From Deferribacter desulfuricans SSM1 (GTDB taxonomy: Bacteria; Chrysiogenota; Deferribacteres; Deferribacterales; Deferribacteraceae): 64,000 bases of DNA. The notes under the pieces are model-generated. The model saw nothing but the letters and a program-made list of their open reading frames with translations. It did not search any database and was not told where the DNA came from. Position 1 is the stretch's first letter. The number at the start of each line of letters is the position of its first letter. This document shows, in pieces, positions 15,961-38,971 of this stretch. Location: NCBI RefSeq assembly GCF_000010985.1, contig NC_013939.1:711501-775500 (forward strand), written 5' to 3'. The translations under genes and the position numbers were made by a program.

Positions 15961-15976
15961 TGGCACAAAATTTGCA
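15961..15976 (+). promoter_or_regulatory. Sigma-54 (-24/-12) promoter before the cytochrome cluster
   Basis: TGGCAC-AAAAT-TTGCA fits the consensus TGGCAC-N5-TTGCW at every position. The predicted start site is about 15987, only two bases before the ATG at 15989, so the mRNA would be almost leaderless. The TGTGTATCA copy 15 bases upstream is a candidate activator site. Confidence 0.7.
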
Positions 15977-23621: not shown

Positions 23622-24926
23622 ATGAAAAAATTTTTTATTTTCTTTATTATATTGTTATCCCCACTAATTTTATATGCTTTTAATTGTACAACCTCAAAAT
23701 GTCATAATGATATTAAAAAACTTGAGTTTGCTCATGGACCTGTAGCTGCAGAGCAGTGTACTGTATGTCATGTTGCTAGTAATATAGAAATTAAAAAACA
23801 TATTGATAGACCAAAGAGTTTTATAGATTTCAAATCTCCTACAGGAGATGATCCTGTGTGTATTATGTGCCATGATAATAAAATGAACGGCAAGTATGTG
23901 CATGCTCCAGTAAATACTGGTGATTGTACAGCTTGTCATAACCCACATGGAGGTACTAATAAATATTTTATAAAGAGTAAAAATGAGTCCAAGACATGCT
24001 TTGAATGCCACGAAAATAATAAAACTGTGAAAAAATACTTACATGGTCCAGTAGCAGCAGGTGAGTGTTCCTCTTGCCACGATCCGCACTCTTCTGATTA
24101 TAAATTTCAATTAAAAGCTGACAAGGATAAGTTATGTTTTATGTGTCATAGTGATAAAAAAGAAGGTTTTAAGAAAGTTGTGGTTCACCAACCTGTTAAG
24201 GATGGTTGTACTAAATGCCATGATCCGCACAATTCTGATACAAAGTTCCATTTAAGGGCAAAATCAGAAAAAGAGTTATGCTTGAGTTGTCATAAAAAAG
24301 ACAAAAATTTATTTCATTTAATTAATAATGCAAAATATAAACATAAACCGGTTAGTGATGGAAATTGTGGTGATTGTCATAATCCTCATTCTTCTGATTT
24401 TGGTAAATTACTATTGAGTGATACTAAAAATATTTGTTTTGATTGTCATGATGATATCGGAGAGAAAGTAAAGAATTCTAAATATGTGCATGGACCTGTT
24501 AAAACAGATGGTTGTACTGCTTGTCATGATGTCCATGGTGCGAAATTTCCTTTTATCTTAAAAATGGCTTTTCCTAAAAAGTTTTATAACCCTTATAAAA
24601 AAGGTTTGTATGATTTGTGCTTTAATTGTCATAATGAACAAATTCTACAGTTTGCATCAACAACAAAGTATACTGGTTTTAGAAATGGAGATAAAAATCT
24701 TCATTATTTACATGTTAGGATTAAAGGTAAGGGAAGAAGTTGTAAAGCCTGTCACGAAGTTCATGCTTCCAATCAGCCAAAGCATGTTAGGAAATCTGTA
24801 CCGTTTGGATCTGGAGGTTGGGAGCTTCCTATTAATTTTACAAAGACTAAAACTGGTGGCAGTTGTGTCGTAGGTTGTCATAAACCAAAGAGTTATGACA
24901 GAGTTCATCCTGTAAAAAATAATTAA
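23622..24926 (+). CDS. Pentadecaheme c-type cytochrome (doubled-CXXCH type)
   Basis: A signal peptide (MKKFFIFFIILLSPLILYA) is followed by 13 CXXCH motifs, one CX4CH (CTTSKCH) at the N-terminus and one CX3CH (CVVGCH) at the C-terminus. A repeated unit of about 40-45 residues, HGPV(A/K)xGxCxxCHDPHxSD...LCFxCH, makes up the chain. This is the doubled-CXXCH family. ATG 23622 follows GGAGG by six bases; a TTG six bases earlier is too close to that site. No anchor is seen. It may have its own sigma-54 promoter. Confidence 0.88.
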   Translation: MKKFFIFFIILLSPLILYAFNCTTSKCHNDIKKLEFAHGPVAAEQCTVCHVASNIEIKKHIDRPKSFIDFKSPTGDDPVCIMCHDNKMNGKYVHAPVNTGDCTACHNPHGGTNKYFIKSKNESKTCFECHENNKTVKKYLHGPVAAGECSSCHDPHSSDYKFQLKADKDKLCFMCHSDKKEGFKKVVVHQPVKDGCTKCHDPHNSDTKFHLRAKSEKELCLSCHKKDKNLFHLINNAKYKHKPVSDGNCGDCHNPHSSDFGKLLLSDTKNICFDCHDDIGEKVKNSKYVHGPVKTDGCTACHDVHGAKFPFILKMAFPKKFYNPYKKGLYDLCFNCHNEQILQFASTTKYTGFRNGDKNLHYLHVRIKGKGRSCKACHEVHASNQPKHVRKSVPFGSGGWELPINFTKTKTGGSCVVGCHKPKSYDRVHPVKNN

Positions 24927-24938
24927 AGGGGATGAGTT

Positions 24939-25880
24939 ATGAGAATTGCAAATTTAATAATAATATTTTTCATTTTTACAAATGTATGTTTTTCTTTCCC
25001 CCTAAAAAACATAAAAAAGGGAGATGTGTTTGATTTTAGTAAGTTTACATCGCAAGAATCGAATTTTGCTAACTCACTTAAAGATAAAAAAATAAAAATG
25101 GTTTTATTGTGGAGGAGTGATAAACAATTGAGTGTTAAAATAGCTAAAAATTTTAAAAAGATTTGTAGCACTAAAAATATATATTGCTACTCAATGGATA
25201 TAAAACAGATAAAAAAAGATGAATTACTTAAATTAATTGGCGATTTGTCCAAAAACTTTTATGTAACCTTATATAATGGTGATATCATTGAGGATTTAGG
25301 AATATACACTTTACCTGTAACAATATTTTTAGATAAAAATAATAAAGTAATTGATGCTATTGGATATGAAGGCCAATATTATGTTAAGATAAATAGATAT
25401 TTAGACTATTTGACAGGTAAAATAAGTAAAGATGAATATGAAAAATATAGTAATACATCAGTTGTTGATCGAAGAAGAAGCATATTACCAGAAATAAATT
25501 TTATAAAAAGATTGATTCGCGATAGTCAGAAAGATGATGCGATAAAAAGGCTTAGTTCTCTAAAATTGGATAATTTAACTAATTTTGAAAAAGTTAAACT
25601 GTCAGAAGTTTATATATTATTACAAAGATATAAAGATGCTGTTAAATTATTAGAGCCTATATCTGATAAATTTATTGATGCTAAATTTTATTTAAGTTTG
25701 GCTTACTATAACATAGGTGAATATGAAAAATCATTAAACTTATTGAAAAATATAGAGAAAATTTATCCTAACAAAAGGAGACTTTATTTTTTACTTGGAA
25801 AAGTTTATAAATCTAAAGGTGATTTTAAAAAAGGGTGTGAATACTTTGAAAAGTCTTGTGAACAAAATCTTATTAATTAG
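24939..25880 (+). CDS. Secreted thioredoxin-fold / TPR protein lacking CXXC
   Basis: Signal peptide (MRIANLIIIFFIFTNVCFS), then a TlpA-like thioredoxin fold (about 30-155: KMVLLWRSDKQLSVKIAKNF, LGIYTLPVTIFLDKNNKVIDAIGYEG). The place of the CXXC is taken by RSDK, so it cannot be a thiol oxidoreductase of the usual kind. Residues 185-313 are TPR-like helices (AKFYLSLAYYNIGEYEKSLNLL). AAGGGGATGAG precedes the ATG. Its place between two cytochrome genes suggests a chaperone or assembly factor for apocytochromes. Confidence 0.78.
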   Translation: MRIANLIIIFFIFTNVCFSFPLKNIKKGDVFDFSKFTSQESNFANSLKDKKIKMVLLWRSDKQLSVKIAKNFKKICSTKNIYCYSMDIKQIKKDELLKLIGDLSKNFYVTLYNGDIIEDLGIYTLPVTIFLDKNNKVIDAIGYEGQYYVKINRYLDYLTGKISKDEYEKYSNTSVVDRRRSILPEINFIKRLIRDSQKDDAIKRLSSLKLDNLTNFEKVKLSEVYILLQRYKDAVKLLEPISDKFIDAKFYLSLAYYNIGEYEKSLNLLKNIEKIYPNKRRLYFLLGKVYKSKGDFKKGCEYFEKSCEQNLIN

Positions 25881-26778
25881 CTTTTTTATATTTGTTTATA
25901 GCTTAGCTTATTCTAATGATATAGTTATTGTTTATCCTTTTGATAATATGATTGTAAATGATTCTCAAATACATATTATTGGTTATGTTAGCCAAAAAGA
26001 TAAAGTAGAAATTATAAGTAATAAGAATTTAATAGATATTAAAAATTTTCAGAAACTAAAAACAAAAGACGGACTTAAATATGTTTTTATGACAAAGGTT
26101 AATGTAGATAAAGGGATTAATGAAATTAATGTAAAATATAAACAAAATAATATAAGTTTGACAGTTAAATATTTGACTTCAGCCGAATTATATAGAGACA
26201 AAATTAAGAGAAAAACGTATTTTCATTTGGATGAAAATAAAAGTTTATGTGTTAGCTGTCATAATTTTAAAAAGATAAAAGACTGTCAGGTTTGTCATTC
26301 AGATAAAATGAACTATACATATGTACATGGTCCTGCAGCAGCATGGCAATGTTTTCAGTGCCATGATAAAAATAATTATTTTGCTCCAAAACAACCAATA
26401 TCTAGCATCTGTTTGCAATGTCATGAGGAGTTTAGGAATAATATGTTTAATGCGCCATATGCTCATGGTCCAACAGTAGCTGGATATTGTAATATTTGTC
26501 ATGATTCACACGGTTCAAATAGGAAATATTTATTAAATGATAAGATCAATAATTTGTGTATTAATTGCCATTCAGAAAAAAAGTCAGGAGTTCATGTTTT
26601 AGCTAATTTTACTTCTTCAGCTCATCCTACAAGTGGTAAGAAGATTCCTGGAACAAAAGAGGAAATTAGTTGTGTTTCTTGTCATAATCCACACTATGGA
26701 GAATCTAAACAGCTATTTCAAAATGGTGTTAAAGATTTTATGATACTTTGTACCAGTTGTCATAAAGATAAACTATAG
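25846..26778 (+). CDS. Octaheme c-type cytochrome with N-terminal Ig-like domain
   Basis: After a signal peptide (KILLISFFIFVYSLAYS) comes a beta-sandwich-like domain (IVIVYPFDNMIVNDSQIHI ... GINEINVKY). Eight CXXCH motifs follow (CVSCH, CQVCH, CFQCH, CLQCH, CNICH, CINCH, CVSCH, CTSCH). The blocks YVHGPAAAWQCFQCH and YAHGPTVAGYCNICH relate it to the 15-heme protein. The start is uncertain: I prefer TTG 25846, preceded by AAGGGTG, which gives MKSLVNK before the signal core. GTG 25837 or 25858 is possible, and ATG 25795 would overlap the previous gene by 86 bases. The preferred start overlaps it by 35. Confidence 0.8.
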   Translation: MKSLVNKILLISFFIFVYSLAYSNDIVIVYPFDNMIVNDSQIHIIGYVSQKDKVEIISNKNLIDIKNFQKLKTKDGLKYVFMTKVNVDKGINEINVKYKQNNISLTVKYLTSAELYRDKIKRKTYFHLDENKSLCVSCHNFKKIKDCQVCHSDKMNYTYVHGPAAAWQCFQCHDKNNYFAPKQPISSICLQCHEEFRNNMFNAPYAHGPTVAGYCNICHDSHGSNRKYLLNDKINNLCINCHSEKKSGVHVLANFTSSAHPTSGKKIPGTKEEISCVSCHNPHYGESKQLFQNGVKDFMILCTSCHKDKL

Positions 26779-26791
26779 TATGGGGGGTTGC

Positions 26792-27892
26792 ATGAAACTT
26801 TTTAGGATATTTTTGACTATTTTAATAGGTATTTTTATTTTTGGTTGCTCAACTAAACAGCCAGTATTTAAAATAGATCAGTATGTTTGGCCAAAAGAAT
26901 CAGCAAATCCTAAATTTAAAGCTGTAAGAGTTATAGCAAATTCAGAAGAGTTTCCTGGAAAAGCATCGAGTAAAAACAGATTATTACAGGAATTGGTTGG
27001 TGATATTAATGTAAAATGGGTAGATTATAGAGCTATAAGAATTGCAACTGATGGTAGAGGCAAAGTTTATATAGCAGCACCAATTGCATTTAAAATACAG
27101 ATAATTGATTTTATACAGAAAGAGATTAGGGATATAAGGTTTGGCTCTATTATGCCTTGTGCCATAGATGTTACTAAAGATGGTAGGATATTTATTGGTA
27201 ATAGATCTGGTGGAAATGTTATGGAAATCACAGAAGATAAAAAGGTTTTATGGTCATATGGAAGAAAAGTTAATGATAAAGACTTCGAGAAGTTAAAAGC
27301 TGAAAAAAAATTCGATGTTGATGGACTATATAAAGATATTTCAGATGTTTTGGTTTATAAAAATAAATTGTATGTAGCTGATCAAATTTTTGGAAGAATT
27401 GATATTTTAACTCTAGATGGTAAATTCATTAAAAGCATAAAAAAGGTTCCAGCACCTACAGCCATAGCTATAGATCCACAGACTGAAGATATTTATGCAG
27501 TATCCAAATTTATTGGGAAAGTATTTATTTATGATAAAGACGGTAATTTTAAGGGGGAGTTATTAGAACCGGGAGATAATATTTGGGCACTGAACTTTCC
27601 AAACGGAATAGACTTTGATTCTGAAGGGCATATTTATATTGTGGATATTGCTTCAAATGGATTTAAAGTATATGATAAAAAAGGAACTTTTTTATATTAT
27701 ATGGGAGCACAAAAACCTTCTGTTTATTTAGGTGGATTTAATAACCCTAAAGATTTGGTAATTGATGATAAGGATAGAATTTATGTATTAGATGCTCCAA
27801 ATAAAAGGGTTGTTATTTTTCAATATTTAGGAGAGTTATATAAAAAAGGTAGGAGAAATATGACAGTTGATGAGCCTATGTTGAGGTGGTAA
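26792..27892 (+). CDS. NHL-repeat beta-propeller lipoprotein
   Basis: A lipobox (IFIFGC) ends a lipoprotein signal, predicting attachment to a membrane. Propeller blades include IRIATDGRGKVYIAAPIAFKI, CAIDVTKDGRIFIGNRS and FPNGIDFDSEGHIYIVDI. The segment after the lipobox, DQYVWPKESANPKFKAVRVI, resembles FDKLFWPDMVNPKIALVDI in the lipoprotein at 36444, so the two are paralogues. ATG 26792 follows GGGGGG by four bases; the ATG at 26780 overlaps that site and is unlikely. It probably serves as an outer-membrane docking partner for the cytochromes. Confidence 0.84.
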   Translation: MKLFRIFLTILIGIFIFGCSTKQPVFKIDQYVWPKESANPKFKAVRVIANSEEFPGKASSKNRLLQELVGDINVKWVDYRAIRIATDGRGKVYIAAPIAFKIQIIDFIQKEIRDIRFGSIMPCAIDVTKDGRIFIGNRSGGNVMEITEDKKVLWSYGRKVNDKDFEKLKAEKKFDVDGLYKDISDVLVYKNKLYVADQIFGRIDILTLDGKFIKSIKKVPAPTAIAIDPQTEDIYAVSKFIGKVFIYDKDGNFKGELLEPGDNIWALNFPNGIDFDSEGHIYIVDIASNGFKVYDKKGTFLYYMGAQKPSVYLGGFNNPKDLVIDDKDRIYVLDAPNKRVVIFQYLGELYKKGRRNMTVDEPMLRW

Positions 27893-27893
27893 T

Positions 27894-29270
27894 TTGAAAA
27901 TTATACCTAAAGAAAAATTTGAAAATATAAAACAAAAATTTTTTAATTTATCATTAACTCAAAAATTTTTAATATCTTCTGTTGCTGTTATATTTCTAGT
28001 TTTGGTTTTATTAAATTTGTTTATATATTTAGATTTTAAGAATTTTTTTATCTCTGTAGAGAGAAAAAATTTTGAGAAAAGGTTTAAAAAATCACTAATA
28101 TCAGCAACCTCTTATTATGTTTTTAGAAATGACTGGGACAATAGTTTAGATTTTAGTCCCATATTTAATATATTAAATAATGAACCAAATTTAATAGAGG
28201 CGATTATTTATTCATCAGATGGAAAAAGACTTGCAGTGATGAAAGAAAGAAAAATACTAAATTTAGAAAACAAAAGTGAAGGATTACTAAAAGCATTAAA
28301 AGGGGAAATCAGTTATGAAATTAAAAAAGCTGGAGAATCAGAGAGTTTTAATTATTTACATATTGTAGATAAAGAGAATGTGATTCAAGAAATATATTAT
28401 CCGGTTATTTTTGATGGTAAGGTTAAAGGAGTTGTTGAAATTTATAAAGATGTTACTGAAGTATTTAATAATATTAGAACTGTGAGATTTAGGGCAACTG
28501 TTTTCTCGATCTTTGGTTTTATTTTATATATTATATTGATTTTTTTTATTGTTAAAAAAATTGAGAATAAAGAAAAGCAGCTCAAAGACAAAGTGGCACA
28601 TTATGAGAAACTTTCGATACTTGGTCAGTTTGCTTCTAAAATGGCTCATGAAATTGGTACACCAATGCATGTAATAATGGGTAACGTAGAACTTATTTTA
28701 GATGAATGTGAAGAAAATAATTTTGTTAAAAAGCGTGGAGAAAATATTGCAAGGCAAATAAATAAAATACAAAATATAATTAGAAATTATTTATATGTTT
28801 CAAAAAAACCTGTTCCAGTTTATGAGCCTGTTAATCTTAAAGAATTAGTTTCTGATATTGTTGAGGATATGTCATTTACTATTTCAGATAATATAGAATT
28901 AAGAACAAATGTTGATGAAGTCACCATATTTACTGATAAAGGCTTTGTAGAACAAATATTGTATAATTTTGTTAAAAATTCGGCTGATAGCATTGGTGAA
29001 AATAAAGGGTTTATTGAGATTAAAAGTGTTATAGATGGTGAATATATAAAATTATTGGTAGTTGATAATGGTAAAGGGATAGATGAAAAGATAAAGGAAA
29101 AAATATTTAACCCTTTTTTTTCAACAAAAAAAACTGGAAAGGGCACGGGCTTAGGGCTTGCTGTTTGTAAGGAGCTGGTAGAATCGTTAGGCGGTCAAAT
29201 ATTTTGTGAATCTAAAGATGGGGAAACTATTTTTGGTATAGAGTTGCATTTAAAGGTGAAAAATGCTTAA
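27894..29270 (+). CDS. Membrane sensor histidine kinase
   Basis: TM1 (about 25-47) and TM2 (202-221) bracket a periplasmic sensor domain of about 150 residues. The H-box KMAHEIGTPMHVI has His252. The N-box is QILYNFVKNSADSIG, the G1 box VVDNGKGID and the G2 box GKGTGLGLAV, all intact. The TTG start has GAGGTGG five bases upstream and begins one base after the preceding stop. Its stop overlaps the response regulator start, so the pair is coupled. The signal is unknown; a periplasmic cue linked to electron acceptors is a natural guess from location. Confidence 0.93.
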   Translation: MKIIPKEKFENIKQKFFNLSLTQKFLISSVAVIFLVLVLLNLFIYLDFKNFFISVERKNFEKRFKKSLISATSYYVFRNDWDNSLDFSPIFNILNNEPNLIEAIIYSSDGKRLAVMKERKILNLENKSEGLLKALKGEISYEIKKAGESESFNYLHIVDKENVIQEIYYPVIFDGKVKGVVEIYKDVTEVFNNIRTVRFRATVFSIFGFILYIILIFFIVKKIENKEKQLKDKVAHYEKLSILGQFASKMAHEIGTPMHVIMGNVELILDECEENNFVKKRGENIARQINKIQNIIRNYLYVSKKPVPVYEPVNLKELVSDIVEDMSFTISDNIELRTNVDEVTIFTDKGFVEQILYNFVKNSADSIGENKGFIEIKSVIDGEYIKLLVVDNGKGIDEKIKEKIFNPFFSTKKTGKGTGLGLAVCKELVESLGGQIFCESKDGETIFGIELHLKVKNA

Positions 29271-30555
29271 AATATTGGTTGTTGATGATGATAAAAATTC
29301 TCGTGATATAATAAAACTTTCATTAGAAAACAGTTACGAAGTTGATGTTGCTTTGAATGGTGTGCATGCTTTAGAACTTATAAGAAGTAAAAGTTATGAT
29401 GTTGTAATATGTGATTATGTAATGAACGAAATAGATGGTATAGAAGTTCTAAAAAAACTTAGAAAAATTGGTAGTAATGCTGTATTTATTTTGATAACTG
29501 CTTTTGGCTCAAGTGACATTGCAATTAAAGCTATACAGGAGGGTGCTTATGAATACTTGAGTAAGCCTTTTAAAATGAGTAAATTGAAACAAATTATACA
29601 AAATGTTGAAAAGGGGTTAAATGAAAGCAAAACATTTAATGAAACAAATAAACTTGAGAATGATTTTGATGATCAAGTTATTGCAGAGTCGTCCGTCTTT
29701 TTAGAGACATTGAAAGATATGGCACGAGTTGCTATTTCAGATGTTCCAGTTTTAATTACTGGGGAGAGCGGAGTTGGTAAAGAGATTGTTGCTAAATCTA
29801 TTCACAGATACAGTAAAAGGAGTAAATATCCTTTTGTAGCTGTTAACTGTAATGCAATTCCTGGTTCTTTATTGGAATCAGAGCTTTTTGGTTATGAAAA
29901 AGGTGCTTTTACTGGTGCTGATAAAGGGAAACCTGGTTATTTTGAGCAAGCTCAAAAAGGGACACTTTTTTTGGATGAGATAGGAGATTTAGAGTTTGAT
30001 TTACAGGTTAAATTATTAAGAGTCTTGCAAGAGCAAAGCATTAGAAGAGTTGGTGGAATAAAGGATATAAAGCTTGATGTTAGGTTTATATTTGCAACCA
30101 ATGTTGATTTGGATAAAAAAGTTCAAGAGGGTAAGTTTAGAGCAGATCTTTATTATAGATTAAAGGTTGCTGAAATTAGAGTACCTCCTCTGAGAGAGAG
30201 GAAAGAGGATATCATACCTTTAGCAAACTATTTTATAAGAAAGTATAATACATTTAATCGAGAAATAAAATTGAGCAATAAAGCTGAGAAACTTTTATTG
30301 AGATATGATTTCCCTGGTAACGTTAGAGAGTTAGAAAATATAATTAGGGCAAGCTTAATTAAGGCAAGATATACAGGTATTATTTTAGATGAGGATCTAA
30401 ATATTAAAGAAGAATTTGTGAAAGATACTATAACAAAAGAAGATATTTTGCAGGTATTGGAAAAAACAAGAAATAATCGTAAAAAAGCTGCAGAATTATT
30501 GGGAGTTAGTAGAGCAACGTTTTATAGATTGTTAAGAAGATATAATATAGATTAG
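29263..30555 (+). CDS. NtrC-family sigma-54-dependent response regulator
   Basis: The receiver (1-120) has Asp51 (VVICDYVMNEIDG). The AAA+ domain has Walker A GESGVGKE (about 167), the sigma-54 contact loop GAFTGA (about 214) and GNVRELENII. The C-terminal Fis-type helix-turn-helix is NRKKAAELLGVSRATFYRLLRRY. It is a complete activator, overlaps the kinase gene by eight bases, and sits beside three -24/-12 promoter candidates. It should activate the surrounding cytochrome genes when phosphorylated. AAGGTG precedes the ATG. Confidence 0.95.
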   Translation: MLKILVVDDDKNSRDIIKLSLENSYEVDVALNGVHALELIRSKSYDVVICDYVMNEIDGIEVLKKLRKIGSNAVFILITAFGSSDIAIKAIQEGAYEYLSKPFKMSKLKQIIQNVEKGLNESKTFNETNKLENDFDDQVIAESSVFLETLKDMARVAISDVPVLITGESGVGKEIVAKSIHRYSKRSKYPFVAVNCNAIPGSLLESELFGYEKGAFTGADKGKPGYFEQAQKGTLFLDEIGDLEFDLQVKLLRVLQEQSIRRVGGIKDIKLDVRFIFATNVDLDKKVQEGKFRADLYYRLKVAEIRVPPLRERKEDIIPLANYFIRKYNTFNREIKLSNKAEKLLLRYDFPGNVRELENIIRASLIKARYTGIILDEDLNIKEEFVKDTITKEDILQVLEKTRNNRKKAAELLGVSRATFYRLLRRYNID

Positions 30556-31248: not shown

Positions 31249-31264
31249 TGGCATAGTTTGTGCT
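31249..31264 (+). promoter_or_regulatory. Sigma-54 (-24/-12) promoter before the tetraheme gene
   Basis: TGGCAT-AGTTT-GTGCT has the invariant GG and GC at the right spacing. The predicted start is near 31275, giving a 25-base leader that contains the strong site GGAGGT before ATG 31300. Confidence 0.62.
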
Positions 31265-31299: not shown

Positions 31300-31905
31300 A
31301 TGAAAAAATTAATTTTATTGGCTACGTTAATTTTATTGCCAACCTTTGTTTTTGCAGGGGTTGCAGGTAGTGCACATGACTTTTCACAAAACAGTGCATC
31401 AAGTTTGTATGGTGGAACAGCTTGTGGCGGTTGTCACAAACCACACAATGCAGGCACACTAATTCCTTTATGGAATGATAGTAATACTTTTGATGGTCAG
31501 TACACAGCTTATTCTTCACCAACTGATTCTCTTAACGCTACCCCAAACAGTACTTTAGGAAGTGTTTCTAAAGCGTGTATGGCATGTCATGATGGTATGA
31601 TTAATGATACTGTTAATGGTGGTACAGCAATAACCGCATTAAAAGCAACAGTAACAGTTGGTTTGGATATTGATTATCAAAATGATGCTCAAGGTCAACA
31701 CCCTGTTTCTATCCAGTATGTAGATAATGGAACTGCTACATCTTTAAAACCATTAGCAAATGTGAAAGCTGCAGGTTTTAAGTTTTATGGAACGAGTGGC
31801 GATATTTTAGAATGTGGCACTTGTCATGATCCTCATGCTGGTGGGTCTCCTGATTTCTTAAGGGCTGATAAAGCGCAATTATGTCAAACTTGCCACAACA
31901 ATTAA
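31300..31905 (+). CDS. Tetraheme c-type cytochrome, OmcE-like (possible filament subunit)
   Basis: Signal peptide (MKKLILLATLILLPTFVFA), then four CXXCH motifs (CGGCH, CMACH, CGTCH, CQTCH). The mature protein has exactly eight histidines: four in the heme motifs and four others (AHDF, CHKPH, GQHP, CHDPH) as possible distal ligands for bis-His hemes. The layout AHDF...CxxCHKPHNA...PLWN...CxxCHDG...HPVS...ECGTCHDPH...FLR...LCxTCH is the tetraheme pattern I associate with OmcE. It has its own sigma-54 promoter, a strong ribosome site and a 3' hairpin, suggesting high expression. Filament formation is an inference. Confidence 0.85.
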   Translation: MKKLILLATLILLPTFVFAGVAGSAHDFSQNSASSLYGGTACGGCHKPHNAGTLIPLWNDSNTFDGQYTAYSSPTDSLNATPNSTLGSVSKACMACHDGMINDTVNGGTAITALKATVTVGLDIDYQNDAQGQHPVSIQYVDNGTATSLKPLANVKAAGFKFYGTSGDILECGTCHDPHAGGSPDFLRADKAQLCQTCHNN

Positions 31906-31906
31906 G

Positions 31907-31958
31907 AAAGCTTTTATACTTGGGGAAGGTGAATACCTTCCCTATTTATAAAAGCTTT
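31907..31958 (+). terminator. Nested intercistronic hairpin (attenuator or mRNA stabiliser)
   Basis: The 12-base perfect outer stem AAAGCTTTTATA/TATAAAAGCTTT encloses a perfect inner stem GGGAAGGT/ACCTTCCC with a GAAT loop. No T tract follows, so partial termination or 3' protection of the upstream message is more likely than full termination. Confidence 0.65.
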
Positions 31959-31976
31959 GTTGATAGAGAGGGGGCT

Positions 31977-32660
31977 ATGAAAATTACTGATAGATTTTAT
32001 TTAGCTTTAGTTATGTTACTTCTTTTTTCATCATTTCTTTATGCATCAAGTTGTTCTACCTATAACTGTCATGTTATTAAACTAAATGGAGAATTTGTTA
32101 AAAATGGTCCTCATACATTTTATAGGTCTGATGGTGTAGATATTTCTCCTTGTGCTCCATGCCACAAACCACATAATGCAGGTAGCAAAATACCACTATG
32201 GAATGATACTAATCAGTATGATGACGGTAGCCCTTATAAAGCTTATTCAAGTCCAACAGGAACATTGGATAATTTACAAGATACAAATATAAGTTCACCA
32301 TCTGAAGCTTGTATGGGTTGTCATGATGGGATGTCAGAAAGCACTGGTTTTACTGGTGGATATTTCGAAACCTATAGCATGGGTGTTTTAACAATTGATT
32401 ATTCTAAGTCTAATCATCCCATTGGTGTTGTATATGATTATACAAAGGATAGTGGGTTAAATAATAATGTTGCTAACGGCTGGGTAAATGGTACAAATGG
32501 GAAATTTAAGTTAATAAATAACAAAGTTGAATGTTTAACATGTCATGACCCTCATAAAGGTGCAATTGGATATAGTTTTACAGATCGTAGAGATATAGAA
32601 AAATTATTGAGAACAACGGATGTGAAAACATTTTGTAGTGAATGTCATACTAATAAATAG
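31977..32660 (+). CDS. Pentaheme c-type cytochrome, homologous to the tetraheme protein upstream
   Basis: The signal peptide (YLALVMLLLFSSFLYASS) leads to CSTYNCH (a CX4CH motif) and four CXXCH (CAPCH, CMGCH, CLTCH, CSECH). Blocks CHKPHNAGSKIPLWNDTNQY, CMGCHDG, NHPIGVVYDYT and ECLTCHDPHKG align one-to-one with the 31300 protein, so this is a paralogue with an extra N-terminal heme. ATG 31977 follows GAGGGGG; an open frame starting at 31881 overlaps the previous gene and is not used. It could be a filament-capping or linking subunit. Confidence 0.82.
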   Translation: MKITDRFYLALVMLLLFSSFLYASSCSTYNCHVIKLNGEFVKNGPHTFYRSDGVDISPCAPCHKPHNAGSKIPLWNDTNQYDDGSPYKAYSSPTGTLDNLQDTNISSPSEACMGCHDGMSESTGFTGGYFETYSMGVLTIDYSKSNHPIGVVYDYTKDSGLNNNVANGWVNGTNGKFKLINNKVECLTCHDPHKGAIGYSFTDRRDIEKLLRTTDVKTFCSECHTNK

Positions 32661-32698
32661 TTTGATTAAAGAAAGAATAAAAAATATCATGGAAAGAA

Positions 32699-33211
32699 AT
32701 GAAGAAATTTTACATACTAATTTTATTGATTTTATTAATTATTATTCAAGTTGTGGATGCCAGAAATAATTCTCATAAATTTTTATACCTTGATGGTAAT
32801 GCCTATTGCTCATATTGTCATAAATTGAGAAAATCTTATAATATCAATCCATTATGGGGTGCAAATAAAATTTTTAATTATATCTCACCGATTATTAATT
32901 TAAATGTTTCAAAAAAAAACAGTTTCAAAGTAATAGATACATTTGATAATATCTCAATTGTTTGTATATCATGCCATTCAGATTATATTGAGCATTCATC
33001 AAGTTTTCACCCAGTAGGTCTAAGTGTTAAGAGTACAAAAAGACATTTAAAAAAAATGAAAATTTATAATAAAAAAATTGATAACAAGTTGCCATTATAT
33101 GGTAATAATGATTTAATGGCCTGTTCCACATGTCATGACCCGCATACAAAAGAGGTTAAGCTACTTAGAGATTTACCAGAAAAATTATGTGTTGATTGTC
33201 ATGAAAGGTGA
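32699..33211 (+). CDS. Small tetraheme c-type cytochrome of the same family
   Basis: A signal peptide (ILILLILLIIIQVVDA) precedes four CXXCH motifs (CSYCH, CISCH, CSTCH, CVDCH) in 170 residues. NSHKFLY...CSYCHK...NPLWG...CISCH...HPVGLSV...ACSTCHDPH...LLRD...LCVDCHE keeps the heme order of the 31300 family in a shortened, diverged form. GGAAAG precedes the ATG. It overlaps the barrel gene's alternative GTG start by four bases and may be the periplasmic feeder to that barrel. Confidence 0.8.
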   Translation: MKKFYILILLILLIIIQVVDARNNSHKFLYLDGNAYCSYCHKLRKSYNINPLWGANKIFNYISPIINLNVSKKNSFKVIDTFDNISIVCISCHSDYIEHSSSFHPVGLSVKSTKRHLKKMKIYNKKIDNKLPLYGNNDLMACSTCHDPHTKEVKLLRDLPEKLCVDCHER

Positions 33212-33213
33212 TT

Positions 33214-35592
33214 ATGATATATAAGATAGTTATTTTATTAACATCATTTATTTTATTCATTAATGTTCAATTTGTTTTTGCTGGTTATATTTATTTAAAT
33301 ACTGGATTAGAAACATTATTTAAGTCGTACTCAAAAAGTGAAGATAATGAATCTAAGCTCTATGAAGGTGGTCAAATAGATAGGTTATTTTTAACAACTA
33401 AATATAAGAGGGAGTTTTTAAGAGGAAGATTAGGAGATTTAAAATTTGATTTAAATTTAGATAAATATCATATGAATTATTTTTATAATGAAAAGCCAAG
33501 TTTTAGCGTACCATTTAGCAATAATAATGGTGATAATACAGATAAATATAACAAGTCTATAAATGGAAGATTAAATCTAAAATTTCCTAAAAAACAAACT
33601 GAGATTACGTTAGAGTATTCAGAAGATAAATTATTTAAAACTGATAGCGATGTATATTTTAACTCTTTAAGTAAGATTAAGACTGATATCCAAGAATTAG
33701 ATGGAGTGGTAAAATCTTTAGATGATTATGATAAAAACAAAATGCAAAATTACTATTTTTATAAATATGGGACAATTAATTTGATGGCTAATTATACAGA
33801 ATATAAGTATTACAAAGGGTTAGAAAGTGATACCAATTATTTAAAAATAGATACTATTAAAAAAGCAGGGGTTGATATAAAAAATAAGGTTGGTTTTAAT
33901 TTTGAACAGGAAATAAAAAAGTTTAATTTAGGGGATGATGACTCTGATAAAAAAACATATCTTTTTGGTTTAGTTGATGCTTTTGGTTTTCCCACACTTC
34001 TTAAATTTGGTGATTTAAAATTTGATGGTTATGCTAAACATATAGATGAAAATTTTGAAGGCAGTAATTTTAATAGTAAGTTTTATCAATTAAGTACTAC
34101 TTATGAAAAAAATCAATATACTTTGTTTTTATCATATAATTATGAATATAATGAAGATAAATATGTGAACGATATTGACAAATATAATGTTGGCACTATT
34201 GGTTTGGACTATGATTCGAAGGATTTGACATATTATACCGAAATAAAATATAAAAAAGGTGTAATAACTTCTAATAATTTGGATAATAACTCTTATTCTT
34301 TTAATAATTTCTTAGCTATCATAAGTTCTGGTTTAAATGGATCAGGAAGTGTCATTATAAAAAATAGTGGCACTTCTTCGGTAGTAATAGATTTGAGTGG
34401 TTTAATTGTTGATGGAAATAATAATTTTAACAATGTGTTGATTTTACCATCAGATCAGTTAGTTATCAGTTATTCTGAATATATTAAAGGTAATGCTGTT
34501 ATTTTATCTGGTGATGGTGATGATTTAACTGTCTATATCACAAGAGATACGGGTTATAAATATAGGAAAAATGAATACAATATTAAAAGTGGATATTATT
34601 TAAAATACTTTGAAACATTTAAATCGAGACTTGATATTGATTATTATTTTTCTAATTATGATGTGATTTATAATCCTAATAATAGATATATAAATGAGGA
34701 TGAAAATCGTTTTAACTTATTAAAATTATTTGAAATAAGACCCTATAATTTAATATTTGATAAACAGTTTGAATACAAACATTTAAATGAAAATCAGGAC
34801 AAGAGTACAAACTGGGGTGTTATTTCAAAAGATGGCTATTTTTCACTTAATAAAAAGTTTTATCTAATTAGTAAATACAATAAATATAATTATGATAAGT
34901 CAAATGATAAAGAGTATTACAGCTTTACCTTAAATTTGGATTTAAGGGGCTCAGATTATAATATCAGTTTTTATCCTGAGAAAGAATATGAAAAAGAGTT
35001 TGGGGTTTATAAAAAGTATACAACAACATACGATTTAAAAGTAAGATACAAAAAGCACAACTTATCTACCTATTATAGCAAAGAAGAGAAAAAATATAAC
35101 AATTTATCAACATATTCAGAAAAAGAGAAAAGAGTTTATTATATCTACAGTGGGGAAAATATATTATTTGATGTTAAATACAATGAGAATATATATGAAT
35201 ATAAGTTACAATTATTTAATGCAAATTTAAAGTTGGTTAAATACAGAAGTTTTCCTGTAGTGAGACCATATGCTATTTTTGAGATAGGTTTTGAGAGAGA
35301 AAGGGATAATGCAATAGGAGAGTATGAAAAAGATGATTATGTTATTGTTAAATTAACTTATACGCCCACTGATAGACTTAGAGCAATATTTTCTTTTGAA
35401 AAGCAGATAGACAGGAATATGGATAAAGGGTATGATTATGAGTGTGGTGTTAATTATCAAACTAGAGTATTTAAGTTAGCTTTAGGCTATAGAAAAAATA
35501 TTACCGAAATTGATGAGAAAAGGAGAGTTGAACATGAGGTTTATTTTGAATTGCGCAAAAATTTTGATTTTTATTATGGTACTGGTTCATAG
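33214..35592 (+). CDS. Outer-membrane beta-barrel (porin-cytochrome conduit type)
   Basis: A signal peptide (MIYKIVILLTSFILFINVQFVFA) is followed by about 770 residues of alternating polar/hydrophobic strands rich in Tyr, Lys, Asp and Asn, for example YTLFLSYNYEYNEDKYVNDI. The size would suit 20 or more strands. There is no heme motif and no TonB plug. Next to cytochromes, a parvulin and NHL lipoproteins, it is best read as the pore of a porin-cytochrome conduit or export channel. ATG 33214 has AAAGG six bases upstream; GTG 33208 is an alternative. The end overlaps the isomerase gene by 59 bases. Confidence 0.75.
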   Translation: MIYKIVILLTSFILFINVQFVFAGYIYLNTGLETLFKSYSKSEDNESKLYEGGQIDRLFLTTKYKREFLRGRLGDLKFDLNLDKYHMNYFYNEKPSFSVPFSNNNGDNTDKYNKSINGRLNLKFPKKQTEITLEYSEDKLFKTDSDVYFNSLSKIKTDIQELDGVVKSLDDYDKNKMQNYYFYKYGTINLMANYTEYKYYKGLESDTNYLKIDTIKKAGVDIKNKVGFNFEQEIKKFNLGDDDSDKKTYLFGLVDAFGFPTLLKFGDLKFDGYAKHIDENFEGSNFNSKFYQLSTTYEKNQYTLFLSYNYEYNEDKYVNDIDKYNVGTIGLDYDSKDLTYYTEIKYKKGVITSNNLDNNSYSFNNFLAIISSGLNGSGSVIIKNSGTSSVVIDLSGLIVDGNNNFNNVLILPSDQLVISYSEYIKGNAVILSGDGDDLTVYITRDTGYKYRKNEYNIKSGYYLKYFETFKSRLDIDYYFSNYDVIYNPNNRYINEDENRFNLLKLFEIRPYNLIFDKQFEYKHLNENQDKSTNWGVISKDGYFSLNKKFYLISKYNKYNYDKSNDKEYYSFTLNLDLRGSDYNISFYPEKEYEKEFGVYKKYTTTYDLKVRYKKHNLSTYYSKEEKKYNNLSTYSEKEKRVYYIYSGENILFDVKYNENIYEYKLQLFNANLKLVKYRSFPVVRPYAIFEIGFERERDNAIGEYEKDDYVIVKLTYTPTDRLRAIFSFEKQIDRNMDKGYDYECGVNYQTRVFKLALGYRKNITEIDEKRRVEHEVYFELRKNFDFYYGTGS

Positions 35593-36487
35593 TAATTTAC
35601 TATTTGCTGAGGATAAGGTTGTTGCAAAAGTTAATGAACAAGACATTCATCTTTTCGAAGTAAAATCTTTTTTGAATAAAGTAGTACCAATAGGACGTTT
35701 TCATACACAATCACTAAATAAAAAAGAGTACTGGGAAAAAGCTTTAAATACTGCAATTGATAGTAGAGCTATTGTTATATTTATAAAAAACAACAATCCT
35801 GAAATATATAATGGATTAAAAAATAAAGTGAATGAGATTATTAAAGTCATTAAAAAAAGATTTAAAAGTAATAATGAATACGCAAAAGCATTAAAAGAAA
35901 ATGGTATAACAGAAAAAATTTTATATGAAACATATATGGATTTGAATGTTAAAGATATCATTAAAGAAAAGATATTTAGTGAAAAGATAGAACCTAAAGT
36001 TTTGAAGGAATATTATAAAAATAATCAGCAAATGTTTTCTACAGGTGAATCTTATGTGGTGAAAAATTGTTTAATTAAAGCTGATGCAAGAGAGCTAAAA
36101 GCAAAAGAGATGGAAGAGAAAAAAAAGGAAGCAGAAAATTTACTGAAAATGCTAAAAGAAGAAGATGAAAAAGCATGGCAAAAGTGTGATAAAGGTATTT
36201 ATCCAGAACAAGATACAGTTTACAAATTTAGCAAGAATTATCCAATAAAAGAAATTTTTAAACTGAAAAAAGGTGATTTTGGAGGACCTTATAGAAACAT
36301 TTATGGATATTTAATTGTGAAAGTCATTGATATTAAACCATCCGAAGTTCTTCCATTTGATGAGATAAAAAATGAAATTGAAAGATTGATGAAATTAAAA
36401 AAATTTAAAGATTATTATAAAAATCTTTTAAAGAGAGCAAAAGATGAAGCAAATATTAAAATTCTTGATAATAATTTTAGTAATTAG
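35534..36487 (+). CDS. Periplasmic parvulin-type peptidyl-prolyl isomerase/chaperone
   Basis: The signal peptide (RFILNCAKILIFIMVLVHSNLLFA) leads into the SurA/PrsA N-terminal chaperone start VVAKVNEQDIHLFEVKSFLN. A helical region follows and then a rotamase domain (about 165-285) with VVKNCLIKADARE, IFKLKKGDFGGPYRNIYGYLIVKV. ATG 35534 follows AGGAGA by seven bases; an upstream ATG at 35510 has no site. It probably helps fold or export the neighbouring barrel or cytochromes. It overlaps both neighbours, implying coupled translation. Confidence 0.85.
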   Translation: MRFILNCAKILIFIMVLVHSNLLFAEDKVVAKVNEQDIHLFEVKSFLNKVVPIGRFHTQSLNKKEYWEKALNTAIDSRAIVIFIKNNNPEIYNGLKNKVNEIIKVIKKRFKSNNEYAKALKENGITEKILYETYMDLNVKDIIKEKIFSEKIEPKVLKEYYKNNQQMFSTGESYVVKNCLIKADARELKAKEMEEKKKEAENLLKMLKEEDEKAWQKCDKGIYPEQDTVYKFSKNYPIKEIFKLKKGDFGGPYRNIYGYLIVKVIDIKPSEVLPFDEIKNEIERLMKLKKFKDYYKNLLKRAKDEANIKILDNNFSN

Positions 36488-37412
36488 TGGATGCTCAACA
36501 CATAATAAAAACTTAGTTCAGTTTGATAAGCTTTTTTGGCCTGATATGGTTAATCCAAAAATTGCCTTGGTAGATATTATTAATATGCAAAAGATTAGAG
36601 AAAATTATAGTTTTTTTAGAAAATTCTTTGGGTTAGAACATGAAATCCAACCTTTATATAGACCTTTTGCTGTTGCTGCAAATGATGAGTATGTTGCTGT
36701 TAGTGATATAATGTTTGGAGTAATTTATTTAATTAATAAAAATAATTTTAAACTGAGGATAATAAAAAGTATAAATAATAAAAGATTTAAATCCATAGTT
36801 GATTTAGATTTTGCTGACAATGACTTGTATATGGTAGATTCTGAAAATAATATTATTATCAAGTATAATGTGATAGATGAAGCCAGTAAGGTAATTGATG
36901 TTCAACTTGAAAAACCTGTATCAATAAAAGTAGATATTAAAAATCATTTGATATTTTTAGCTGATACTAAACGTAATAAAATAATAGTTACAGATTTAGG
37001 TGGAAATATAATAAAGGAGTTTGATAAATATTTTAATTTCCCTCTTGATGTTGACATTATTCCTGAAGAAAAAATTTTATTTGTTTTAGATTCAATGAAT
37101 TTTAGGGTGTTGAAACTAGATTATGATGGCAATTTGATTGGTGAGTTTGGTGAGATTGGTAATAGACCCGGTAATTTTTCAAAACCTAAAGGGTTGTGTA
37201 TTGATAAGTTTCATAGAGTTTATATTACTGATGCAGACTTTGATAATTTTCAGATCTTTGATGAGAAAGGTAACCTCCTTTATTTTATTGGACAAAATGG
37301 TTCGGATGAAGTGTCTTTTTATATGCCCGCAAGAGTTTATTGTTATAAAGATGAAATTTATGTGTCAGATCTTTTTAATTCAAGGGTAAAAGTTTTTAAG
37401 TCTTTTAGATGA
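36444..37412 (+). CDS. NHL-repeat beta-propeller lipoprotein
   Basis: The lipobox LVISGC is followed by propeller blades such as FNFPLDVDIIPEEKILFVLDS and FSKPKGLCIDKFHRVYITDA. It is a paralogue of the lipoprotein at 26792, sharing a (L/V)FWPxxxNPK segment after the lipid anchor. The start lies 44 bases inside the isomerase gene with only a modest GAGAG site, so coupling is likely. It presumably sits on the outer membrane with the barrel. Confidence 0.85.
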   Translation: MKQILKFLIIILVISGCSTHNKNLVQFDKLFWPDMVNPKIALVDIINMQKIRENYSFFRKFFGLEHEIQPLYRPFAVAANDEYVAVSDIMFGVIYLINKNNFKLRIIKSINNKRFKSIVDLDFADNDLYMVDSENNIIIKYNVIDEASKVIDVQLEKPVSIKVDIKNHLIFLADTKRNKIIVTDLGGNIIKEFDKYFNFPLDVDIIPEEKILFVLDSMNFRVLKLDYDGNLIGEFGEIGNRPGNFSKPKGLCIDKFHRVYITDADFDNFQIFDEKGNLLYFIGQNGSDEVSFYMPARVYCYKDEIYVSDLFNSRVKVFKSFR

Positions 37413-37441
37413 TTTTTTGGTAGCGAGACGGAGGTGCGTTT

Positions 37442-38971
37442 ATGAAAATTAGATTATTTTTATCTTTGTTTATCATAATCGGTTTTAGTGTTATTATTTA
37501 TGCTGGTGTTGCCAATACAAAACATAATTTGTCAAAATCAGGGCCTGGTCCCATAAAATCAAGCGAAGAAGATAGAGTTTGTGTATTTTGTCATACACCA
37601 CATAACGCACTTCCTTACGCTCCACTTTGGAATAGGGAACTAAGTAATGCTTTATATCAAACATATACTTCTGTAACCATGAATGCACAGCCTGGACAGC
37701 CAACTGGCAATTCAAAACTTTGTTTATCTTGTCATGATGGTACTATCGCTTTAAATGCTATATATGCATCTTCAACTCCGATTGCTAATGATCTAAATTT
37801 TACTTTAACAGGAGATTCAAATCTTGGGACAGATCTTAGAGATGATCATCCTATATCTTTTGTGTATGATGATAATTTAGCAAATCAGGACAGGCAATTA
37901 AAATCACCTTCTACACTTCCTTCTTTTATCAAATTGCAAAACGGTAGAGTAGAATGTACAACATGTCATGATCCTCATACTGAAACTGTTTATTTCTTAA
38001 GAACTGGGGATAAGCAACTATTATGTACAAGTTGTCATGATAAAAAGTTGGAGGGAACTGTAACTTTGAGTTTTTCATCTTCTATTCATAATCAAGTAAT
38101 AAGTAGTGCCCCAATTTCTGCAGATTACCCATGTGGAGATTGTCATAAGCCTCATAATGCAAAAGATGTGGTTAATGGTGATTCGACAACACAGCTTTTA
38201 AAAGGGAGAGAAGAGAACCTATGTTTTATATGTCATGGGAGCTCACAAGGTATAGGCCCTCTTTCTCAAAATAATATTGATATAGAGAATTTAATGAGCA
38301 GTAATGATGGATTTTATGATACTTATAGTGGGACTCGTAGATGGGTAAACAGATCTCATGATGTAACTGATGCACAACAAAGTAGTAGTGGAGCTCATAT
38401 AGAGTGTATAAATTGTCACGGAGTACATGGTGTAAGAAGAGATGATTTAAATACTACAAATGTTATAGAATCGCTTGTGGATCCTGATAATCCATCCCAA
38501 CCATTTACTTGGGGGCAACCAACAAACTATAGTGGATCTGATAAATATTGGTTGAAAGTATACAAAATAGATCACTTTTGTTTAAAATGTCATGATGGAA
38601 GTTTTCCTACCTTTTCTGATAGACCGGATTTAAATGTATTAGAGCCTTCCAATAATAATGGTTATATAAGAAATATCGCTTCAGGTTTTTATAATTCTGT
38701 ACATGGTAAAAAGAGAATCCCTTGTATTATTTGTCATGATCCTCATGGTGGCAATCCATTTTTGATATCAAATAGAGTAAGATGGACAAATGCTCCTTTT
38801 GATACCAAAAATGCTTCAAGGTCAAACTTTGATAGTGGAGACATTTATGTACCTATCCCAGTTAAATTCGAGTTATGTAGAAAATCTTGTCATAATGGAG
38901 ACAAACAGAGCCACCAAACAGGTAAAACAAACTGTCAATCGTGTCACTATCATGGTGGAGGAAAACTATAA
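37442..38971 (+). CDS. Undecaheme c-type cytochrome with N-terminal OmcE-like tetraheme module
   Basis: Signal peptide (LFLSLFIIIGFSVIIYA), then ten CXXCH and one CX3CH (CRKSCH). Residues about 20-205 repeat the tetraheme layout of the 31300 protein: KHNLS, CVFCHTPHNA, PLWN, CLSCHDGT, HPISFVYD, ECTTCHDPH, FLRTG, CTSCH. A seven-heme extension follows (CGDCHKPHNA, CFICHG, CINCHG, CLKCHDG, CIICHDPHGG and so on). CGGAGGT precedes the ATG. It is the last gene of the cluster. It could join a filament to the barrel or act as terminal reductase. Confidence 0.86.
   Translation: MKIRLFLSLFIIIGFSVIIYAGVANTKHNLSKSGPGPIKSSEEDRVCVFCHTPHNALPYAPLWNRELSNALYQTYTSVTMNAQPGQPTGNSKLCLSCHDGTIALNAIYASSTPIANDLNFTLTGDSNLGTDLRDDHPISFVYDDNLANQDRQLKSPSTLPSFIKLQNGRVECTTCHDPHTETVYFLRTGDKQLLCTSCHDKKLEGTVTLSFSSSIHNQVISSAPISADYPCGDCHKPHNAKDVVNGDSTTQLLKGREENLCFICHGSSQGIGPLSQNNIDIENLMSSNDGFYDTYSGTRRWVNRSHDVTDAQQSSSGAHIECINCHGVHGVRRDDLNTTNVIESLVDPDNPSQPFTWGQPTNYSGSDKYWLKVYKIDHFCLKCHDGSFPTFSDRPDLNVLEPSNNNGYIRNIASGFYNSVHGKKRIPCIICHDPHGGNPFLISNRVRWTNAPFDTKNASRSNFDSGDIYVPIPVKFELCRKSCHNGDKQSHQTGKTNCQSCHYHGGGKL

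What the first reader, a model, noticed from the sequence alone, without database searches (positions are those of the whole stretch)
31300..38971. Four homologous tetraheme modules beside barrel, parvulin and NHL genes: possible cytochrome filament system
The genes at 31300, 31977 and 32699 and the N-terminus of the 37442 protein share the order H, CxxCHxPHNA, PLW, CxxCHDG, HP(V/I), CxTCHDPH, (F/L)LR, CxxCH. The first has exactly eight histidines for four hemes. In Geobacter, filament-forming cytochromes (OmcE, OmcS) are found near isomerase and NHL genes. The 4-heme gene also has its own promoter and 3' hairpin, suggesting a high-copy subunit, with diverged copies as cap, linker or base.
Basis: partly seen in the sequence, partly recalled or inferred. 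Interest (0 to 1): 0.85.

Follow-up and report, generated by a model that had tools for sequence, protein, structure and literature searches.

The report
OmcE-type cytochrome nanowire gene cluster
A hot-vent bacterium carries a complete, conserved set of genes whose key protein belongs to the same family as a heme-filled surface filament of Geobacter, which makes it the best available candidate for how this poorly understood bacterial phylum passes electrons to solids outside the cell.

Summary
Gene 31300 encodes a 201-aa tetraheme cytochrome with exactly eight histidines. It is a full-length homologue of the filament protein OmcE (PDB 7tfs; E 2e-14 single, 1.4e-62 as family profile). Gene 31977 is a five-heme paralogue. 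Gene 32699 is a degenerate paralogue that has lost one ligand histidine, PHNA and CHDG. Gene 37442 is an 11-heme protein whose N-terminal 200 aa are an OmcE module.

It has been called a "remnant" metal-reduction system. It is not decayed: order, heme counts and ligands are conserved in other genera, with dN/dS 0.07-0.26.

The composition (tetraheme, PPIase, barrel, NHL proteins, undecaheme) matches the Uet cluster described in Tenderiales. Across about ten phyla the same neighbourhood recurs, and the modules fused in 11-12-heme proteins form one group, so the fusion looks ancient. OmcE1 has its own sigma54-type promoter site in seven of seven genomes and a strong 3' hairpin.

Polymerisation itself was not tested: AlphaFold models were unusable. 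Most likely this is an OmcE-type nanowire subunit beside an MtrAB-like conduit; the 11-heme protein may be the filament's adaptor.

The parts
15989..16963 (+). 10-heme cytochrome c, first gene of the 19-gene cluster
   Evidence: ORF with 10 CxxCH, orthologues at the same place in other genomes; sigma54-like site TGGCACAAAATTTGCA at 15961, not found upstream of the G010, G012 and G008 orthologues
16982..18007 (+). 6-heme (or more) cytochrome with a C-terminal membrane segment, part of a putative inner-membrane quinol:cytochrome module
   Evidence: ORF and heme count; 64-77% identity in other genera; function inferred
18004..18900 (+). cytochrome b561 / formate-dehydrogenase-gamma-like membrane protein
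   Evidence: Pfam Ni_hydr_CYTB E 7e-11; TIGR01583 E 4e-9, below cut-off
18901..19716 (+). triheme membrane-anchored cytochrome
   Evidence: 3 CxxCH
19732..20586 (+). NHL-like beta-propeller 1 (by synteny and similarity; no Pfam hit)
   Evidence: no family; orthologues
20589..23546 (+). 28-heme cytochrome
   Evidence: 28 CxxCH, conserved as 28 in four genomes
23622..24926 (+). 13-heme MtrA/DmsE-like cytochrome, candidate in-barrel conduit
   Evidence: MtrA chain 6r2q_A E 1e-13; TIGR03508 E 6e-40, below its cut-off; sigma54-like site upstream in 4 of 4 genomes tested
24939..25880 (+). TPR protein
   Evidence: Pfam TPR
25843..26778 (+). 8-heme cytochrome
   Evidence: 8 CxxCH
26792..27892 (+). NHL beta-propeller lipoprotein 2
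   Evidence: Pfam NHL E 2e-12; lipobox-like FIFGC in the sequence
27894..29270 (+). sensor histidine kinase
   Evidence: Pfam HisKA + HATPase_c
29263..30555 (+). NtrC-family sigma54-activating response regulator
   Evidence: Pfam Response_reg + Sigma54_activat E 1e-69 + HTH_8
31249..31264 (+). sigma54-type (-24/-12) promoter-like site TGGCATAGTTTGTGCT for the OmcE1 gene
   Evidence: GG-N10-GC site of score 9-11 of 12 at -51 to -77 of the OmcE1 start codon in 7 of 7 genomes; G011, G012 and G013 are close relatives
31300..31905 (+). OmcE1: OmcE-family tetraheme cytochrome, predicted filament subunit (UetA-like)
   Evidence: 7tfs_A E 2e-14; profile 1.4e-62 to 7tfs and 5.1e-51 to 9yuq; 8 ligand His invariant
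31907..31964 (+). strong RNA hairpin between OmcE1 and OmcE2
   Evidence: -35.1 kcal/mol, z -7.3; hairpin of different sequence at the same place in the other six genomes
31977..32660 (+). OmcE2: five-heme OmcE paralogue with an extra N-terminal CX4CH
32699..33211 (+). OmcE3: degenerate four-heme OmcE paralogue that has lost the H49-equivalent ligand
33208..35592 (+). predicted outer-membrane beta-barrel, 792-794 aa
   Evidence: no family hit; signal peptide, excess of amphipathic strands z 2.6, same slot as barrel-like ORFs in other phyla; profile homology to those not detected
35534..36487 (+). periplasmic PPIC-type (parvulin/SurA-like) prolyl isomerase
   Evidence: Pfam Rotamase_2 E 1e-20
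36444..37412 (+). NHL beta-propeller lipoprotein 3
   Evidence: Pfam NHL E 4e-11; lipobox-like VISGC in the sequence
37442..38971 (+). 11-heme cytochrome (UetJ-like): N-terminal OmcE module (residues 1-~200) fused to a 7-heme C-terminal part
   Evidence: 10 CxxCH + 1 CX3CH; family profile matches 7tfs over profile positions 6-207, E 6.6e-51; ancient fused group

Best explanation
This is an extracellular-electron-transfer gene cluster of the Uet composition. Its main product (31300, OmcE1) is most likely an OmcE-type tetraheme subunit that is secreted, loses its signal peptide and polymerises head-to-tail into an insulated heme nanowire. Electrons would pass from quinol through the cytochrome b/c module (16982-19716) and the periplasmic multiheme proteins, including the 28-heme one, to an MtrA-like cytochrome (23622) inside the beta-barrel (33208), then to the filament. 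The 11-heme protein, whose N-terminus is itself an OmcE module, would join the filament to the conduit or cap it. The PPIC isomerase and the NHL lipoproteins would be folding and assembly factors. The cluster's own kinase and NtrC-type regulator would switch on OmcE1 and the MtrA-like gene from sigma54 promoters, and the hairpin would let OmcE1 be made in excess over the genes behind it. Shown here: family membership, ligand conservation, operon conservation, promoter-like sites and hairpin. Inferred: polymerisation, electron path, roles of barrel, isomerase, NHL and 11-heme proteins, regulation.
For: OmcE 7tfs matched over the full length (2e-14; 1.4e-62); a second solved member, 9yuq (218 aa, same 8 His and 4 CxxCH), is deposited as 16 identical chains. 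All eight ligand His invariant, wherever covered, in 116 free or fused modules from about ten phyla, including the N-terminal His about 7 residues from the predicted mature N-terminus. 19-gene order and heme counts kept in other genera, dN/dS 0.07-0.26. NHL genes make up 89 of 294 non-heme ORFs within 1.5 kb of a module gene versus 2 of 233 beyond 5 kb. Barrel-like ORF and 11-12-heme fusion recur. Geobacter-type OmcE itself sits with two NHL genes, a 10-heme relative of the 23622 gene and a barrel-like ORF (L060). Sigma54-type site in 7 of 7 genomes and positional hairpin; NtrC-type regulator next to it. MtrA-like 23622.
Against: No direct evidence of polymerisation; identity to OmcE is about 34%; interface residues could not be checked; AlphaFold models had pLDDT 45 and 42. 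The Deferribacterota barrel shows no profile homology to the barrel-like ORFs of other phyla. D. desulfuricans is reported not to reduce Fe(III) (PMC6896113), so the acceptor is unknown. In G014 an insertion sequence truncates OmcE1 before heme 4, so the gene is dispensable there. Even for Geobacter the physiological role of cytochrome filaments is disputed (PMC11077965).
Confidence: 0.65

Rival explanations
1. Uet/porin-cytochrome conduit without a filament: OmcE1 is a monomeric or short-oligomer surface tetraheme that passes electrons between the conduit and the extracellular substrate.
For: The Uet literature calls UetA only an extracellular tetraheme cytochrome (PMC10734462). All ligands could in principle be internal. 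Many clusters hold only one single-module gene beside a 12-heme fusion.
Against: The OmcE filament is itself in this family (7tfs), a second member is solved as 16 chains, and the separate promoter and hairpin suggest excess production.
Confidence: 0.22
2. Remnant of a metal-reduction system, as published: genes kept by inertia and no longer functional in D. desulfuricans.
For: Stated in the genome literature because the species does not reduce Fe(III) (PMC6896113, PMC13186404). IS insertion in the OmcE1 gene of G014.
Against: All 19 ORFs intact with all heme motifs; dN/dS 0.07-0.26 (synonymous sites near saturation); order and heme counts kept across other genera; regulatory sites conserved.
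Confidence: 0.08
3. Electron uptake rather than export: as proposed for cathode-oxidising Tenderiales, the cluster brings electrons in from minerals or partner cells. This differs from the best explanation in direction, and is compatible with a filament.
For: Same composition as the Uet cluster proposed for extracellular electron uptake (PMC12575090); relatives in gammaproteobacterial tubeworm endosymbionts.
Against: Deferribacter species respire external acceptors such as S0, and some Fe(III) (PMC6896113, PMC13186404). Sequence cannot give direction.
Confidence: 0.12

Closest known systems
OmcE filament of Geobacter sulfurreducens (PDB 7TFS)
   Same: Full-length tetraheme homologue, same eight ligand histidines and motif order; NHL and barrel-like neighbours and a relative of the MtrA-like gene in Geobacter contig L060.
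   Different: About 34% identity; loops shorter; no glycosyltransferase genes adjacent here as seen beside L060 (naming from their N-terminal sequence only); two extra local paralogues and an 11-heme OmcE-module fusion in the same operon.
Uet (undecaheme electron transfer) cluster uetABCDEFGHIJ of Tenderiales and Gallionella
   Same: Tetraheme, PPIase, beta-barrel, NHL proteins and an undecaheme protein, all present here; a TPR protein is also in the cluster.
   Different: The three periplasmic trihemes are replaced by a five-heme and a four-heme OmcE paralogue; the barrel is not detectably homologous to barrel-like ORFs of other clusters; an upstream quinol module, a 28-heme and an MtrA-like protein are added; gene order differs from the alphabetical Uet order. 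Tenderia sequences themselves were not compared.
MtrAB / PCC3-type porin-cytochrome conduits
   Same: MtrA/DmsE-like 13-heme protein (6r2q_A E 1e-13), a barrel, a very large cytochrome (28 hemes; the periplasmic PCC3 protein has 21-27).
   Different: No MtrC-like decaheme on the outside was recognised; an OmcE-type subunit may take its place; the barrel has no detectable sequence similarity to solved MtrB.
PDB 9YUQ, 'Putative multiheme cytochrome c' (16 identical chains)
   Same: Same family (profile E 5e-51), 4 CxxCH and 8 His.

Membership tests
OmcE filament family | Sequence homology over the whole tetraheme domain | tested here: met
   7tfs E 2e-14 / 1.4e-62
OmcE filament family | Four CxxCH and four distal His in the same order | tested here: met
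OmcE filament family | A heme (heme 2 in OmcE, PMC12203936) ligated by a His of the neighbouring subunit | not testable with these tools
   Ligand His all present, including the N-terminal one; which one acts in trans is not decided; AlphaFold models unusable
OmcE filament family | Forms micrometre-long extracellular filaments | not testable with these tools
   needs cryo-EM
OmcE filament family | NHL and barrel-like genes beside the subunit gene | tested here: met
Uet cluster | Undecaheme cytochrome (UetJ) | tested here: met
   37442 has 11 heme motifs; most relatives have 12; homology to the Tenderia protein itself not tested
Uet cluster | Extracellular tetraheme (UetA), PPIase (UetB), beta-barrel (UetC), NHL proteins (UetH, UetI) | tested here: met
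   composition met; barrel by position and strand pattern only; no direct sequence comparison with Tenderia
Uet cluster | Periplasmic triheme cytochromes (UetD, UetE, UetG) | tested here: not met
   no free triheme c7-type genes between tetraheme and barrel here; 5-heme and 4-heme OmcE paralogues in that place; gammaproteobacterial locus L068 does have the triheme TIGR04257
MtrCAB-type conduit | MtrA/DmsE-family decaheme | tested here: inconclusive
   23622 matches MtrA and TIGR03508 at 137 bits, below the 192-bit cut-off
MtrCAB-type conduit | MtrB barrel homology | tested here: not met
   no hit
OmcS or OmcZ filaments | Hexaheme OmcS or octaheme OmcZ sequence | tested here: not met
   OmcS 6ef8 only E 4e-5 with the profile, partial; OmcZ not hit

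The most novel reading that the evidence does not exclude
Uet-type clusters throughout bacteria are OmcE-nanowire assembly systems: the free tetraheme is the polymerising subunit, and the 11-12-heme protein, carrying an anciently fused OmcE module with all eight ligands intact, docks into the polymer by the same histidine exchange and is the dedicated end-piece (base or tip) that wires the filament to the outer-membrane conduit. In Deferribacterota, OmcE2 with its extra N-terminal heme is a second, opposite end-piece.
Probability: 0.35. Interest if true: 0.82.

Novelty: new variant of a known kind. Interest (0 to 1): 0.6.

Why it matters
How Deferribacterota move electrons to solids is described as unresolved, and pilin or omcB genes have been proposed instead (PMC6896113, PMC13186404). 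Recognising an intact OmcE-type subunit in the 'remnant' cluster gives a concrete, testable candidate in thermophiles, where filaments may be stable enough for structural work. More widely, it joins two literatures, OmcE filaments and Uet conduits, by homology and shared gene neighbourhood, and it predicts how a cytochrome nanowire is anchored and ended, which as far as I know is an open question.

Tried and rejected
AlphaFold2 of OmcE1 (30-row alignment) gave pLDDT 45 and of the 11-heme protein (33 rows) pLDDT 42: too poor for a fold search, so none was run. Profile-profile comparison of the Deferribacterota barrel with barrel-like ORFs of other phyla: no homology, so 'barrel' rests on signal peptide, C-terminal aromatic pattern, amphipathic strands and synteny. 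Viral contigs: no relatives. Intrinsic terminator after OmcE1: rejected, no T-tract. Rfam: nothing. OmcS/OmcZ identity: rejected. Chance CxxCH similarity as explanation for the paralogy: rejected for 31977 and 37442; 32699 matches only weakly. Remnant explanation: disfavoured. Wang 2022 (OmcE structure), Baquero 2023 and Eddie 2022 (Uet) are not held, so prior listing of this homologue there cannot be excluded.
Full report
WHAT WAS CHECKED. The window is G000:C1:711501-775500 of a 2,542,933-base genome in two contigs, the chromosome being 2,234,389 bases. These sizes are, by my own knowledge, those of Deferribacter desulfuricans SSM1, and the gene order fits the published DEFDS_0741-0760 cluster. 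The finding's four modules exist at the stated places. The first has 8 His and 4 CxxCH. In its own genome it hits 31977 (E 1e-26), the N-terminus of 37442 (2e-24) and weakly 32699 (3e-4); the remaining multiheme genes match only short CxxCH segments.

FAMILY. Against all PDB sequences, 31300 matches OmcE (7tfs_A) over its whole length at 2e-14. A profile of 30 relatives matches 7tfs at 1.4e-62 and a second entry, 9yuq (16 identical chains, 'putative multiheme cytochrome c'), at 5e-51; the next PDB sequence is at 2e-6. In an alignment of 133 modules, all four CxxCH motifs and all four distal His are invariant wherever the segment is covered in the 61 free modules and 55 fused modules; only OmcE3 has lost one ligand (H49). 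[quoted passage not shown] The histidine about seven residues from the predicted mature N-terminus is invariant in the free and fused modules and is my candidate donor, by analogy and position only.

THE CLUSTER. Nineteen genes, 15989-38971, all on the + strand, are conserved in order and heme count (10, 6, 3, 28, 13, 8, 4, 4+1, 4, 10+1) in a second species of the genus and in further families of the order, with small departures (11 hemes in the first gene of G014; the Calditerrivibrio MAG is split over two contigs and shorter; G013 is seen only in part). Seven of 51 genomes of the phylum carry an OmcE1 homologue. Pairwise dN/dS with the congener is 0.07-0.26, with synonymous sites close to saturation (one gene saturated and not estimated). 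That argues against the published 'remnant' reading (PMC6896113, PMC13186404). The cluster holds a cytochrome b561-type protein with multiheme partners, an MtrA/DmsE-like 13-heme protein (MtrA chain 6r2q_A, E 1e-13), a 28-heme protein, a histidine kinase and an NtrC-type sigma54 activator, a PPIC isomerase, NHL lipoproteins and a 792-aa protein with no family hit but a barrel-like pattern.

REGULATION. A -24/-12 (sigma54) type site with the GG-N10-GC core lies 51-77 bases before the OmcE1 start codon in all seven genomes, three of which are near relatives. Another precedes the MtrA-like gene in four of four genomes tested, and one precedes the first gene in D. desulfuricans, though not in G010, G012 or G008. 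Such sites of score 9 or more occur 9 times on the + strand of the 64-kb window, about 0.03 per 200 bases. Between OmcE1 and OmcE2 stands a hairpin of -35 kcal/mol (z -7.3). The other six genomes have strong hairpins of different sequence at the same place. It lacks a T-tract, so processing, stabilisation or attenuation is more likely than plain termination. This fits a subunit made in excess, but expression was not measured.

WIDER DISTRIBUTION. A scan of 84,980 species genomes found 359 relatives, of which 80 loci were kept, from Thermodesulfobacteriota, Myxococcota, Nitrospirota, Pseudomonadota (including tubeworm endosymbionts), Planctomycetota, Verrucomicrobiota, Acidobacteriota and others. 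Within 1.5 kb of a module gene, 89 of 294 non-heme ORFs are NHL proteins, against 2 of 233 beyond 5 kb (p 4e-23, ORFs treated as independent). A recurrent order is tetraheme - NHL - small cytochrome(s) - barrel-like ORF - NHL - 11/12-heme protein. Geobacter-type OmcE (44-52% identical to 7tfs) sits with a 10-heme relative of the MtrA-like gene, an 8-heme protein, two NHL proteins and a 769-aa barrel-like ORF (L060). The N-terminal ~200 aa of the 11/12-heme proteins are an OmcE module. In a maximum-likelihood tree the fused modules, including those of Deferribacterota, fall in one starred group of 55 rows (SH-aLRT 96) that also holds four free modules, one of them on a very long branch. OmcE1, OmcE2 and OmcE3 of Deferribacterota group together at 90, below the star threshold (quick method, unrooted). 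So the 11-heme partner is an ancient co-occurring relative, and OmcE2 and OmcE3 look like local duplicates.

WHAT IT IS. The composition is that of the Uet cluster (tetraheme UetA, PPIase UetB, barrel UetC, trihemes UetDEG, NHL UetHI, undecaheme UetJ; PMC10734462), proposed for electron uptake in Tenderiales (PMC12575090). Here the trihemes are replaced by OmcE paralogues. Searches of the held library found no paper that connects Uet with the OmcE filament (and the papers read after it); the key structural papers are not held, so novelty of this link is provisional.

MECHANISM, SHOWN AND INFERRED. Shown: homology, ligands, synteny, purifying selection, promoter-like sites and hairpin. Inferred: secretion by the Sec route, polymerisation with histidine exchange, electron path quinol -> periplasmic cytochromes -> MtrA-like protein in the barrel -> filament, assembly roles for isomerase and NHL proteins, and an end-piece role for the 11-heme protein. 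The end-piece idea rests on layout: its C-terminal seven hemes continue from the module's last heme, so it could join a chain only at one end; OmcE2 is altered at the opposite, N-terminal side.

LIMITS. Structure models failed; barrel homology across phyla was not detected; D. desulfuricans is reported not to reduce Fe(III), so the natural acceptor (elemental sulfur is one possibility) is unknown; and the function of cytochrome filaments is debated even in Geobacter (PMC11077965). In G014 an insertion element cuts OmcE1 before its fourth heme, a natural knock-out worth using as a comparison.

Noticed in passing
L030:15890-17440 (G014): A transposase-bearing insertion element interrupts the OmcE1 gene before its fourth heme motif; the lost 3' end stands beyond the element. 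The 2,526,590-bp chromosome is, from memory, that of Flexistipes sinusarabici: a natural knock-out.
   Followed up: partly
window 15961, 23575, 31249: Three sigma54-type promoter-like sites precede three gene starts of the cluster that itself encodes an NtrC-type regulator; similar sites precede the 11-heme gene in G010, G012 and, further upstream, G008.
   Followed up: yes
PDB 9yuq: A solved 16-chain 'putative multiheme cytochrome c' belongs to the OmcE family; no paper found in the held library.
   Followed up: partly
L039:10001-13617: A Lamellibrachia tubeworm endosymbiont carries two similar copies of the tetraheme plus triheme pair in one Uet-like cluster.
   Followed up: no
L060:14405-17619: Genes that look like glycosyltransferases (by N-terminal sequence only) follow the omcE-NHL-barrel genes in a Geobacter contig; OmcE filaments are reported as glycosylated.
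   Followed up: no
L081: A 12-heme OmcE-module protein lies on a contig labelled Bifidobacterium breve, probably a misbinned or mislabelled metagenome record.
   Followed up: no
window 20589-23546: A 28-heme cytochrome, conserved as 28 hemes in four genomes, resembling the very large periplasmic cytochromes of PCC3 clusters.
   Followed up: partly
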